A stretch of 64,000 nucleotides of DNA from Pyrobaculum oguniense TE7 (GTDB lineage Archaea > Thermoproteota > Thermoprotei > Thermoproteales > Thermoproteaceae). The translations under genes and the position numbers were made by a program. The notes beneath the pieces are model-generated. The model searched no databases, had not been told where the DNA came from, and saw nothing but the letters and a program-made list of their open reading frames with translations. The first letter of the stretch is position 1; the number at the start of each line of letters is the position of its first letter. The stretch lies in contig CP003316.1 in NCBI GenBank assembly GCA_000247545.1, positions 2,141,233-2,205,232 on the forward strand. The letters are read 5' to 3'. Shown here one piece after another: positions 4,133-48,548 of the stretch.

Positions 4133-5419
4133 ATGTCGGTTTTTAAGGCCTATGATATAAGAGGGGTGGTAGACCGCGAGTTGACAATGGAGCTTGTGGA
4201 AAAAATCGGCTACGCGATTTCCAAGTTCTTCGGCGGAGGCGACATCATAGTAGGAATGGACGTGAGGACGCACTCTTTTAGAATTGCGGAGGCTCTTGCC
4301 CGGGGTCTCCTCTCCGGAGGCGACGTCATTTTCATCGGAACCTCTACGACGCCGGTGACGCACTATGCGTCGTACGTGTTGCAGAGACCTGCCGTGATGA
4401 TCACAGCCTCGCACAACCCGCCTGAGTACAACGGTATGAAGATCATGAAGAGCGGAGGCCTCGACTTGGAGAGCCAAGAAATTCAGCAACTTGCAACTAT
4501 GCTAGAGGGGCCACCTGCGGAGAAGCGCGGCGTAGTGCGGGTTGCTGACGCGCTGTCCCGCTACATGGACTACATGTCGGGCAGATTCGGGGAGCTCGGT
4601 CTCTCAGCCGGCTTCGACCCGGCTAATGCGGCAGGCGTGGTGCTAAAGCCTTTGCTTAAGAAGGTGTTTCAAAAGGTGGTGGCAATAAACGACGTGCCGG
4701 ACGGCCGCTTCCCAGCGCACCTCCCCGACCCGGAGAAGGCGGAGAATCTACAACAGCTCCGCGCCTTGGTTAAGGAGAACAACCTAGACGTAGGCATAGC
4801 TCTTGACGGGGATTGCGATAGAGTCGGCTTAGTCACAGCTAGGGGGGAGATCTTCAGACCCGAGAAGATTGTATACGCGTTGCTAAATTATCTAGCCAAG
4901 CCAGGCGACGTCGTAGTCCTAGACGTGACAATGCCCCTTTACCTAGAAAAAGTAGCCGAAGAGAGGGGGGTAAAGGTGGTTAGACAGAGAGTTGGCCACA
5001 GCTTCCAGAAGCCAACTGCTGTCAAATACAACGCGCTCTTCTGGGCGGAGTACAGCGGCCACATAGGCTTTAGGGAGCACAACTACTTCGACGACGGTAT
5101 CTACGCGGCGTTGAAGTTGCTCGCTACGTTGGGCGACGCCGGCGTTACCATGGATGAGGTATTAGAGAAAGCGCCGAAGGTGTACGAAGAGCGTGTAGAC
5201 ATTAGAGCAACCGATCCTAGAAGGGCTGTGGAGGAGGCCAAAAAGCGGGCGGCTAACTTAGAGTTCCACGAGCTGGACGGTCTAGACATACGCACTAAGG
5301 ACGGAAGAGTCTTAATTAGGCCGAGCAATACCGAGCCCGTTATCCGCGTGAAAATTGAAAGCATCACAAAAGACGGGTTTGACAGACTTAAGTCGCTAGT
5401 GGCTCAGCTACTGCCATAG
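4133..5419 (+). CDS. phosphomannomutase/phosphoglucomutase
   Basis: An alpha-D-phosphohexomutase of 428 residues that interconverts hexose 1- and 6-phosphates in sugar-nucleotide synthesis. The phosphoserine loop TASHNPPEYNGMK has its serine at residue 93, the metal-binding loop DGDCDRVG is near residue 225, and the C-terminal phosphate loop RPSNTEPVIRVKIE is intact. The N-terminal FKAYDIRG is the family opening. The ATG lies about 26 bases after a TATA box (about 4099-4110). The last 16 bases overlap the convergent oxidoreductase gene. Substrate choice between mannose and glucose phosphates is unresolved. Confidence 0.92.
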   Translation: MSVFKAYDIRGVVDRELTMELVEKIGYAISKFFGGGDIIVGMDVRTHSFRIAEALARGLLSGGDVIFIGTSTTPVTHYASYVLQRPAVMITASHNPPEYNGMKIMKSGGLDLESQEIQQLATMLEGPPAEKRGVVRVADALSRYMDYMSGRFGELGLSAGFDPANAAGVVLKPLLKKVFQKVVAINDVPDGRFPAHLPDPEKAENLQQLRALVKENNLDVGIALDGDCDRVGLVTARGEIFRPEKIVYALLNYLAKPGDVVVLDVTMPLYLEKVAEERGVKVVRQRVGHSFQKPTAVKYNALFWAEYSGHIGFREHNYFDDGIYAALKLLATLGDAGVTMDEVLEKAPKVYEERVDIRATDPRRAVEEAKKRAANLEFHELDGLDIRTKDGRVLIRPSNTEPVIRVKIESITKDGFDRLKSLVAQLLP

Positions 5420-6807
5420 AGCATTTGCGGTTTGCCATAAAGGAAGTATGAGGGTTTTTGCGCAAGCAAGGCCCCCAGTATTATAGATGCATACGTAAGA
5501 CACACGCTCTCTGCGCATACGCTTTCGCCGAACGAGAGCTTGGGCAATCTTAATTGCCTGAGGACGTCCGTCTCCTCGTGCGTGATCTTCACCTTAAGCT
5601 TCTTAAGTTTGTTCATCTGCTCTATTTCCTTTAACACTCTCTCGGCCGGCGTGCCGTCGCAAGGGCACAGCACTATGTCGCCGGCTTCCTCAATCTGGGG
5701 CCAAAATGATGCCCAGTGGGGGACATCAATGACGTTAGGCTCCACATAGCGCCCCGTGCCGTCGGTGCCGCGCTCAAGCCTGTTGCCCAGGTTGTAAAGC
5801 CAGTTTGCTTCTACTGTGAACGTGACCAAGAGCTTGTCAAGTGCGTCTTTTGCCTTGTCCATAGACTCTACACCGTCTTTCGCGGCTATGTACGTTGCCA
5901 GTACTTTGGCTTGTTCTGCTATATGGCTTTCCCTAAGCGCTCCGTAGAGGTGGCCGGTTGCGTACACATTGCTCCCGCCCACTGCTCTCCCTCCATCGTC
6001 TACTATTAACAACTCGCCGTAGTTATTACGCCTCGGTATGAGCGAGCCCAGCTCGAAGGTGTAGTATATCTTATATCCAAGCTTGAGCGGTACGTAGGGA
6101 TTCACAATCCTCACGGCGGAAACTATGAGGTCAACTCTCTCCTTTCTGCTCTCTGGCTCTTTTTTGCCGGTTATTATGTCATATATCAACACGCCTTTTT
6201 CATATCTCTTTACAATTACAGAGGGTATTATTGGAAAGTCAATCTTTGACTTTACTTTCTCGTAATACTTTACGTCTCTTAAGTATGCCGAGTTGTCCAA
6301 GACAACTACTTCATTACCCCGATTTCTCAACGCAAGGGCTGTGCGTAGCCCCCACTCAGTAGTACCCCAGACCACAATTTTTAAACCAGTTGGGGTAGCT
6401 GAGAGAACCTCTTCTGCGGTTTTTTGGGGTGCTTTAAGTCCGCCGGGAAATGTAATCGGCACGTCGGTGCCGCCTGTGGCGAGGATAAGGTGTCTATAAC
6501 ACACACGATACCTCACCCCTCCCTGATACAAGTATACTCCATCAAAGAACCCCTGGGATACGTCTAGGTTTTTTGCTTTTGCTATTACTCCGTCTATATC
6601 TATATCGGAATACCTAGGGGCGTCTCCAAGGATGTGGTGCCCCCCCAAGTTCCCCGTGTATACTACCTTGGGATTGTAGCCGTACTTCTTAAGCTCAGAG
6701 GCGACTATAAGCCCCCCTAGGCCGCCTCCGACTACTAAGACGTCAACCTCTAGCTCCTCCTCTCTAGTGGCCTCCGGCTTGCAGTGAATGGCCGATGTAC
6801 AGCTCAC
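5404..6807 (-). CDS. FAD-dependent oxidoreductase with BFD-like cysteine domain
   Basis: A 467-residue flavoprotein. An N-terminal Rossmann dinucleotide motif VLVVGGGLGGLIVASEL (residues 24-40) binds FAD, and a second nucleotide-binding segment near KIVVWGTTEWGLRTAL resembles the NAD(P) domain of pyridine nucleotide-disulfide reductases. The last 90 residues contain two cysteine pairs, CPC and CAESVC, placed as in the BFD-like [2Fe-2S] domains of proline dehydrogenase, HcnB and sarcosine oxidase alpha subunits. The usual redox disulfide CxxxxC is absent near the N-terminus. The GTG start lies about 22-25 bases after a TATA box (about 6822-6836). Physiological substrate unknown; no partner subunit adjoins it. 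Confidence 0.72.
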   Translation of the reverse strand: MSCTSAIHCKPEATREEELEVDVLVVGGGLGGLIVASELKKYGYNPKVVYTGNLGGHHILGDAPRYSDIDIDGVIAKAKNLDVSQGFFDGVYLYQGGVRYRVCYRHLILATGGTDVPITFPGGLKAPQKTAEEVLSATPTGLKIVVWGTTEWGLRTALALRNRGNEVVVLDNSAYLRDVKYYEKVKSKIDFPIIPSVIVKRYEKGVLIYDIITGKKEPESRKERVDLIVSAVRIVNPYVPLKLGYKIYYTFELGSLIPRRNNYGELLIVDDGGRAVGGSNVYATGHLYGALRESHIAEQAKVLATYIAAKDGVESMDKAKDALDKLLVTFTVEANWLYNLGNRLERGTDGTGRYVEPNVIDVPHWASFWPQIEEAGDIVLCPCDGTPAERVLKEIEQMNKLKKLKVKITHEETDVLRQLRLPKLSFGESVCAESVCLTYASIILGALLAQKPSYFLYGKPQMLYGSS

Positions 6808-6846
6808 GGCGGTCCTTTGATAAAACTATAAAAATTGTAGCGCTGA

Positions 6847-6898
6847 GATCAGCGCTTTGGACCTGCATCACCATATCAACGTTTACATCTCATCACAT
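6847..6898 (-). ncRNA. box C/D guide sRNA
   Basis: Reading the minus strand: C box GTGATGA (6896-6890), 10-base guide GATGTAAACG, D' TTGA (6879-6876), spacer TATG, C' GTGATGC (6871-6865), 12-base guide AGGTCCAAAGCG (6864-6853), D box CTGA (6852-6849). This is the archaeal dual C/D architecture that directs fibrillarin-dependent 2'-O-methylation. A TATA element (TTTATAT read on the plus strand, 6918-6924) is centred about 24 bases upstream, so the gene seems to have its own promoter. It occupies most of the space between two divergent protein genes. Targets were not identified. Confidence 0.85.
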
Positions 6899-6924
6899 TA
6901 AAATAAAAATCGCATTCTTTATAT

Positions 6925-7482
6925 GTGCTAAGCGAGCTCGGTGCGCTGGTGAGGAGATTCCTTGATGGCGATAGGTCAGTGGCAGACCGCCTGGCGGAGG
7001 TGGGTTTTATAGAGAGAGGAGAGCCACTTACTAGGAGCTATATACTCTACAAGGCTTTGAAGAGCGGGATCAACGTATCTAGCTATTTAAGAAGGCTGGA
7101 ATGGAGAGAGTTCGAGGAGTTCATCAGATATGTCTTCTCCGAATTTGGCTACAACGTAGTTGCCAATATTAGACTAGAATGTGGCAGAGGTGCCGAGTTC
7201 GATATAGTTGCGTGGAGTAGGGACGTGGCCTTCGTGGTAGAGGCAAAGAAGTGGAGGGCCGGCGGAGGCAGGTGGGATGAAATCGCGCGTATTCACTTAC
7301 AGAAGGTGACGATGTGTCTTCACAAGCTTCTTGCATTTTCACCTTCGGTTGTGCCTCTGGTTGTCACTTCCACGGACACCAGTTTTATTTCTAGAGGAGT
7401 ACCGGTTGTACCTGCTTGGAAAATAGGGAACTTTCTCGCCTCTTTTGATCACTTCAAGGATCAGATAACTATACTTAGATAG
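6925..7482 (+). CDS. predicted PD-(D/E)XK nuclease
   Basis: A 185-residue protein. The central part carries a restriction-endonuclease-like active site: an acidic helix EFEEFIRYVFSEFGYNV, then EFDIVAW and VVEAKKW, giving the D-(x)n-E-x-K signature of Mrr/Hjc-like nucleases. A short helical N-terminal region precedes it (residues 1-55). GTG at 6925 follows a TATA-like AAAATAAAAAT by about 20-25 bases. The 3' third overlaps the small antisense zinc protein gene (7339-7587). No methylase or partner is nearby, so it is probably a stand-alone DNA repair or defence nuclease rather than part of a restriction system. Confidence 0.65.
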   Translation: MLSELGALVRRFLDGDRSVADRLAEVGFIERGEPLTRSYILYKALKSGINVSSYLRRLEWREFEEFIRYVFSEFGYNVVANIRLECGRGAEFDIVAWSRDVAFVVEAKKWRAGGGRWDEIARIHLQKVTMCLHKLLAFSPSVVPLVVTSTDTSFISRGVPVVPAWKIGNFLASFDHFKDQITILR

Positions 7483-48438: not shown

Positions 48439-48548
48439 GCCGGGGTGGCCGAGCGGCCCAAGGCGCGGGACCGCCGTAGCGGCGGCGCCAAACTCGAGAT
48501 CCCGTCCCCGTACAGGGGTCGTGGGTTCAAATCCCACCCCCGGCGCCA
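48439..48548 (+). tRNA. tRNA-Ser(CGA) with intron, CCA encoded
   Basis: Acceptor GCCGGGG pairs with CCCCGGC; T arm GTGGG-TTCAAAT-CCCAC; long variable arm TCCCCGTACAGGGGTC, as in Ser and Leu tRNAs; discriminator G73 and encoded CCA (48546-48548) point to Ser. The anticodon stem CGGGA/TCCCG encloses 29 bases; removing 22 leaves CTCGAGA, anticodon CGA. The intron is 48472-48493 (or 48471-48492, as a repeated C makes the cut ambiguous), so it lies at position 31/32 or 32/33 instead of the canonical 37/38. The intron contains a CCGCCG/CGGCGG hairpin. Confidence 0.92.
48472..48493 (+). other. non-canonical tRNA intron
   Basis: A 22-base insertion in the 5' side of the anticodon loop of tRNA-Ser(CGA). 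It would be removed by the archaeal splicing endonuclease from a bulge-helix-bulge or relaxed fold, which I could not draw with certainty. The exon GGCGC just before it can pair with GCGCC near the intron's 3' end. Confidence 0.75.

What the first reader, a model, noticed from the sequence alone, without database searches (positions are those of the whole stretch)
6847..6898. Box C/D guide RNA with its own promoter between two divergent genes
The minus strand shows C GTGATGA, a 10-base guide, D' TTGA, a 4-base spacer, C' GTGATGC, a 12-base guide and D CTGA, with a TATA element 24 bases upstream that overlaps the start region of the nuclease gene. Both guides (GATGTAAACG and AGGTCCAAAGCG) await a target. 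Promoters for the sRNA, the oxidoreductase and the nuclease are packed into 118 bases.
Basis: partly seen in the sequence, partly recalled or inferred. Interest (0 to 1): 0.6.

Follow-up and report, generated by a model that had tools for sequence, protein, structure and literature searches.

The report
Guide RNA for tRNA-Gln wobble methylation
A real, conserved small guide RNA sits here and most likely directs a methyl group onto the wobble base of one glutamine tRNA; it is a normal member of a well-known class, and its relatives in sister lineages seem to aim at two sites of that same tRNA.

Summary
C box, D guide and D box recur in 11 of 11 Pyrobaculum genomes, each beside the same divergent nuclease gene. 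The D guide (AGGUCCAAAGCG) forms 10 unbroken Watson-Crick pairs with the anticodon arm of tRNA-Gln(UUG), and box D+5 falls on wobble U34. It has no rRNA match and mispairs at position 34 of tRNA-Gln(CUG). Um34 is reported for tRNA-Gln(UUG) of Sulfolobus acidocaldarius (Wolff 2020). The D' guide drifts within Pyrobaculum and looks like an orphan. Two results go further. In one species (size of P. calidifontis) the guide fits intron-containing pre-tRNA (11 pairs) better than spliced tRNA (8). In 19 genomes outside Pyrobaculum the same RNA carries a conserved D' guide matching the tRNA-Gln 3' end, with D'+5 on U72, where Wolff 2020 reports an unassigned methyl-U. So the ancestor was probably a two-site tRNA-Gln guide and Pyrobaculum kept the U34 half. 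The gene itself is an ordinary C/D guide, probably already among the 83 annotated in this genome, which I could not check.

The parts
6847..6898 (-). box C/D guide sRNA (predicted transcript about 50 nt)
   Evidence: four boxes in order; C...D block of 46-50 nt in 13 of 13 family orthologues
6890..6896 (-). box C GTGATGA
   Evidence: TGATGA invariant in 13 of 13 aligned orthologues
6880..6889 (-). D' guide GATGTAAACG, no target found (orphan)
   Evidence: best rRNA/tRNA run 6 bp, reached by most shuffles; varies between species
6876..6879 (-). box D' TTGA
   Evidence: sequence; variable among orthologues
6865..6871 (-). box C' GTGATGC
   Evidence: sequence; only partly conserved
6853..6864 (-). 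D guide AGGTCCAAAGCG, target anticodon arm of tRNA-Gln(UUG), U34 at D+5
   Evidence: 10 contiguous WC pairs with G000:C1:610207-610279; conserved
6849..6852 (-). box D CTGA
   Evidence: invariant in 13 of 13 aligned orthologues
6918..6924 (-). TATA box of the sRNA (ATATAAA), 22-28 nt upstream of box C, abutting the nuclease start codon
   Evidence: A/T in 9-10 of 10 orthologues per column
6897..6909 (+). A/T-rich element ATTAAAATAAAAA, inferred TATA box of the divergent nuclease gene
   Evidence: columns -7 to -3 A/T in 9-10 of 10; about 20-25 nt before GTG 6925; role inferred
6826..6834 (-). TATA-like element of the oxidoreductase gene, about 23 nt before its GTG
   Evidence: sequence, similar element in orthologues; role inferred
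6839..6856 (-). inverted repeat (8-nt arms, 2-nt loop) enclosing box D
   Evidence: similarly strong in 3 other orthologues, absent in others
6925..7482 (+). NERD/Mrr-type nuclease gene
   Evidence: Pfam NERD 7e-06, Mrr_cat 7e-06; beside the sRNA in 11 of 11 Pyrobaculum loci
5404..6807 (-). pyridine nucleotide-disulphide oxidoreductase-like gene downstream of the sRNA
   Evidence: Pfam Pyr_redox_2 8e-09; directly downstream in 9 of 11 Pyrobaculum loci

Best explanation
The locus encodes a box C/D guide sRNA of about 50 nt, transcribed from its own TATA promoter. Folded into k-turn and k-loop and bound by L7Ae, Nop5 and fibrillarin, it pairs through its D guide with the anticodon arm of tRNA-Gln(UUG) and places a 2'-O-methyl on wobble U34. 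The C'/D' half is retained as scaffold, but its guide has no target in Pyrobaculum. Shown: boxes, conservation, complementarity, position rule, isoacceptor specificity. Inferred: transcription, RNP assembly, the methylation itself.
For: Boxes and spacing. C box, D guide and D box kept in 11 of 11 Pyrobaculum and 2 genomes of a sister genus while the D' guide drifts. D guide against 46 tRNA-family matches plus 16S and 23S: one 10-bp match, tRNA-Gln(UUG), next best 6; 6 of 1000 shuffled guides reach 10 or more anywhere. D+5 lands on U34; the CUG isoacceptor mispairs exactly there. Same 10-bp match in a distant genome of the order, G036, best of 46 target sequences. In the putative P. calidifontis genome a changed guide base matches a changed base of the pre-tRNA. 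Wolff 2020 (PMC7668247, passages): U34 of tRNA-Gln(UUG) is a predicted C/D target in S. acidocaldarius and is reported methylated.
Against: No RNA data seen. Guide position 1 mispairs in all cases compared, so the duplex is 10 or 11 rather than 12 bp. In G007 (Pyrobaculum) and G028 the guide has U at position 5, which would not pair with U34. The D-box hairpin in this species could compete with the k-turn. The pattern was designed after seeing the case.
Confidence: 0.9

Rival explanations
1. A cis element in the oxidoreductase leader: a k-turn bound by L7Ae that regulates the downstream gene.
For: Same strand and directly upstream in 9 of 11 Pyrobaculum loci; L7Ae binding to k-turns and proposed translational regulation are described in archaea (PMC5539422, title and abstract start in listing).
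Against: In G004 and G007 the RNA is kept without that gene next to it, and in two genomes of another genus without either neighbour within the fetched locus. The oxidoreductase has its own TATA-like element about 23 nt before its start codon. The conserved part is the D guide, not only the k-turn.
Confidence: 0.04
2. A C/D sRNA whose main target is rRNA or another RNA, the tRNA-Gln match being secondary.
For: 56% of Pyrobaculum guides have predicted rRNA targets against 16% tRNA (Lui 2018 as cited in PMC7994747 section 6).
Against: Longest rRNA run of the D guide is 6 bp against 10 for tRNA-Gln(UUG); in G036 the best rRNA run is 5. mRNA targets were not searched.
Confidence: 0.04
3. Chance box motifs in an A/T-rich promoter region.
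For: C' and D' are off consensus; the D' guide is not conserved.
Against: No full match in 200 resamples of the window; 22 invariant columns across 13 genomes, concentrated in C box, D guide and D box.
Confidence: 0.01

Closest known systems
Archaeal box C/D methylation guide sRNAs (Pyrobaculum families of Lui et al. 2018)
   Same: C/D'/C'/D order, about 50 nt, one guide on a tRNA and the other without target, as reported for tRNA-directed Pyrobaculum sRNAs (PMC7994747 section 6)
   Different: No structural difference found; I could not see Lui 2018 to match it to a numbered family
Sulfolobus acidocaldarius C/D guidance of tRNA-Gln(UUG) U34
   Same: Same tRNA and same nucleotide; Um34 reported (PMC7668247)
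Rfam RF01145 sR14
   Same: Best Rfam C/D match of the window RNA (11.6 bits, E 1) and of the G036 orthologue (31.8 bits, gathering 38, E 1.2e-7)
   Different: Below the gathering score, and the match rests on boxes more than on guides; not a member
pre-tRNA-Trp intron C/D RNA (sR50)
   Same: Guides methylation at position 34 of a tRNA (PMC7994747 section 6)
   Different: Encoded in the intron of its target; here a free-standing gene acting in trans

Membership tests
Archaeal box C/D guide sRNA | C (RUGAUGA) and D (CUGA) boxes about 50 nt apart | tested here: met
   GTGATGA...CTGA, 48 nt; 46-50 nt in 13 of 13 orthologues
Archaeal box C/D guide sRNA | internal C'/D' pair with short spacer | tested here: met
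   TTGA-TATG-GTGATGC, both boxes off consensus; degenerate in several orthologues
Archaeal box C/D guide sRNA | guide complementary to a stable RNA, target at box D+5 | tested here: met
   D guide, tRNA-Gln(UUG) U34, 10 bp; D' guide no target
Archaeal box C/D guide sRNA | stable transcript bound by L7Ae, Nop5, fibrillarin | not testable with these tools
   no RNA or pull-down data held
Archaeal box C/D guide sRNA | 2'-O-methyl on the target in vivo | not testable with these tools
   only the S. acidocaldarius report from the literature
Rfam RF01145 sR14 | score at or above gathering (38 bits) | tested here: not met
   11.6 bits window, 31.8 bits G036 orthologue
Pyrobaculum C/D family in Lui et al. 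2018 | listed in that catalogue | not testable with these tools
   paper not held

The most novel reading that the evidence does not exclude
This RNA descends from a two-site guide devoted to one tRNA: D guide for U34 and D' guide for U72, the 3' side of the first acceptor pair of tRNA-Gln, with pairing that runs to the CCA end. That would suggest a C/D guide as the source of the unexplained methyl-U72 of Sulfolobus tRNA-Gln(UUG). Pyrobaculum lost the U72 half, and in P. calidifontis the remaining guide re-adapted to the exon-intron junction, so that methylation there precedes splicing.
Probability: 0.45. Interest if true: 0.55.

Novelty: new member of a known kind. Interest (0 to 1): 0.36.

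Why it matters
It turns a guide with no target into a testable prediction at a decoding nucleotide: Um34 in tRNA-Gln(UUG) only, sparing the CUG isoacceptor. The wider family suggests how one guide RNA loses one of two targets on the same tRNA, offers a candidate system for an unassigned methyl-U72 in archaeal tRNA-Gln, and gives one case where a guide seems to follow an intron boundary, which bears on whether methylation precedes splicing.

Tried and rejected
rRNA targets for either guide: none beyond shuffles. D' guides of all 11 Pyrobaculum orthologues were scanned against P. oguniense rRNA and tRNA as a stand-in for each species' own: none convincing; the two 8-bp runs (G004, G006) were reached by 7 and 16 of 60 shuffles. 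The second hit in G001 (L027) lacks a C box and was dropped. A guide for tRNA-Gln(CUG) in the own genome: none with up to 1 mismatch. CGCTYTGGACC as a direct genomic target: in the own genome it hits only the sRNA locus itself, because the tRNA differs at guide position 1. D-box hairpin as a conserved element: strong in G000, G003, G009, G010, fair in G001, none in G002, G004, G037, so not treated as general. Viral contigs: 10 exact matches to GGTCCAAAGCGCTGA, 0 of 10 with a C box upstream. Genus g2 hits beside the 3' end of the oxidoreductase (G014, G015) do not match the tRNA-Gln sequences fetched.

Full report
Source. The window is bases 2141233-2205232 of a 2,436,033-bp contig, the chromosome length given for Pyrobaculum oguniense TE7 in PMC3558965 (abstract and passages). 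That paper reports 83 predicted C/D sRNA genes. Whether this locus is among them I could not check, since the record's annotation was not available to me and Lui et al. 2018 is not held.

Observation. A four-box pattern hits the window once and never in 200 Markov resamples; the pattern was written after the fact, so conservation is the better test.

Conservation. BLAST with 71 bases found it in 9 of 11 genus genomes. The pattern AGGTCCAAAGCGCTGA with up to 1 mismatch hit 12 of 19 family genomes (10 of 11 Pyrobaculum, 2 of 2 in genus g3) and 0 of 19 when read backwards. The remaining Pyrobaculum genome, G002, carries a variant upstream of the oxidoreductase. So 11 of 11 Pyrobaculum genomes (G000-G010) and 2 genomes of g3 have it, with C...D of 46-50 nt. 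In the 13-row alignment TGATGA, most of the D guide and the D box are invariant, whereas the D' guide is not. The nuclease gene lies beside it in 11 of 11 Pyrobaculum loci and the oxidoreductase in 9 of 11 (G004 and G007 differ); neither was found in the two g3 loci.

Target. I took 46 tRNA-family matches from the own genome and the rRNAs. The D guide gives one outstanding match, 10 Watson-Crick pairs with GCUUUGGACC of tRNA-Gln(UUG), G000:C1:610207-610279; next best is 6. Of 1000 shuffled guides 6 reach 10 or more anywhere. The nucleotide opposite guide position 5 is U34, as the D+5 rule (recalled) requires. tRNA-Gln(CUG) has C34 and mispairs at that position. The D' guide has no match above shuffles, which fits the reported habit of tRNA-directed Pyrobaculum sRNAs to have one idle guide (PMC7994747 section 6).

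Independent support. PMC7668247 (passages; section 11) says that in S. [quoted passage not shown]

A guide that follows an intron. G002 (2,009,313 bp; I recall this as P. calidifontis, the handle itself is unnamed) has an intron at the anticodon loop of both tRNA-Gln genes, so that its pre-tRNA(UUG) reads GGCUUUGGAUCC. Its guide is GGAUCCAAAGCG: 11 contiguous pairs with the pre-tRNA, 8 with spliced tRNA. The common guide would give 8 and 10. Other intron-bearing species (G004, G005, G017, G018) have guides that fit spliced tRNA slightly better than pre-tRNA. This is one informative base in one genome, suggestive only. No UUG gene was found for G008, and in G007 the guide does not pair at U34.

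The wider family. A sequence-only model from the 13 orthologues was searched in 45 genomes of the order. All 45 have some match at E<=1, many to other sRNAs. By reading the sequences I count the tRNA-Gln type D guide, small variants included, in 30 of 45: 11 Pyrobaculum, 2 of g3, G019, 4 of 5 in g6, 12 of 12 in g8. In the other 15 I saw other guides (G011-G016, G021, G023, G024, G030-G032) or did not inspect the weak matches (G020, G022, G029). In the 19 genomes outside Pyrobaculum the D' guide contains GGTAGCC (19 of 19; 18 distinct sequences, G026 equal to G025); in Pyrobaculum 0 of 11. Its complement GGCUACC(A) is the 3' end of tRNA-Gln with CCA. To test it I read all of genome G036 and found tRNA-Gln(UUG) at 2163086-2163161 and tRNA-Gln(CUG) at 1618825-1618900. 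Against 44 tRNA genes plus 16S and 23S, the D guide's best match is tRNA-Gln(UUG), 10 bp at U34, and the D' guide's best matches are both tRNA-Gln genes, 8 bp, G69 to A76, with U72 at D'+5. Taken alone the 8 bp is weak: 84 of 500 shuffled guides reach 8 somewhere, but only 98 of 20000 do so on tRNA-Gln(UUG). The agreement of both guides on one tRNA, the conservation of just the stretch that pairs, and the reported methyl-U72 make it worth testing. The D' guide of G017/G018 also matches the tRNA-Gln 3' end of those genomes by eye. For the other 16 genomes no tRNA-Gln was fetched.

In print. Searches for a U72 guide or a Vulcanisaeta-type guide on tRNA-Gln listed no paper that I recognised as describing it; only PMC7668247 was read on this point. 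The library lacks most subscription papers and Lui 2018, so this is no proof of novelty.

Promoters. In ten Pyrobaculum loci the columns -28 to -22 and -7 to -3 before box C are almost all A/T. The first is the sRNA TATA box and abuts the nuclease start codon; the second lies about 20-25 nt before that start codon on the other strand and is, by inference, the nuclease's TATA box. The two promoters thus overlap head to head, which could make them exclude one another; untested.

Verdict. A genuine, ordinary C/D guide with a now identified target. The broader two-site history is the part a specialist would want to test.

Noticed in passing
window 29241 to about 29190, minus strand: A second C/D-like candidate: GTGATGA ... 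GTGACAG ... GCAGAACCCAG CTGA, mostly intergenic, with a TATA-like CTTATATTAAG about 30 nt upstream. Its D' stretch has a 10-bp match to one tRNA gene, not tested against shuffles.
   Followed up: partly
L254, G000:C1:451961-452009 (+), outside the window; similar L235-L237, L239, L240, L242-L245, L248, L249, L251: Another sRNA family with D guides GGTTAAAAGCG or GGTTAATAGCG and, in many, a D' guide like CCAGGCTG; by eye these fit the anticodon arm of tRNA-Lys(UUU) or tRNA-Asn and a tRNA D-loop.
   Followed up: no
window 6839-6856: Perfect 8-nt inverted repeat around box D; about as strong in G009 and G010, nearly so in G003, absent in G002 and G004. It may compete with the k-turn or act on the oxidoreductase promoter.
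   Followed up: partly
G007 (L022) and G028 (L219): The tRNA-Gln guide has U instead of A at guide position 5, opposite the target nucleotide, in two distant genomes.
   Followed up: no
G014 (L241) and G015 (L238): C/D-like sRNAs lie antisense at the 3' end of the oxidoreductase gene in genus g2, whereas in Pyrobaculum the sRNA is at its 5' end.
   Followed up: no
G000:C1:1431838-1433173: A second partial SSU rRNA match (model 829-1467) suggests a large intron in the 16S gene.
   Followed up: no
window 48439-48545: An intron-bearing tRNA gene, the only Rfam gathering-level match in the window.
   Followed up: no
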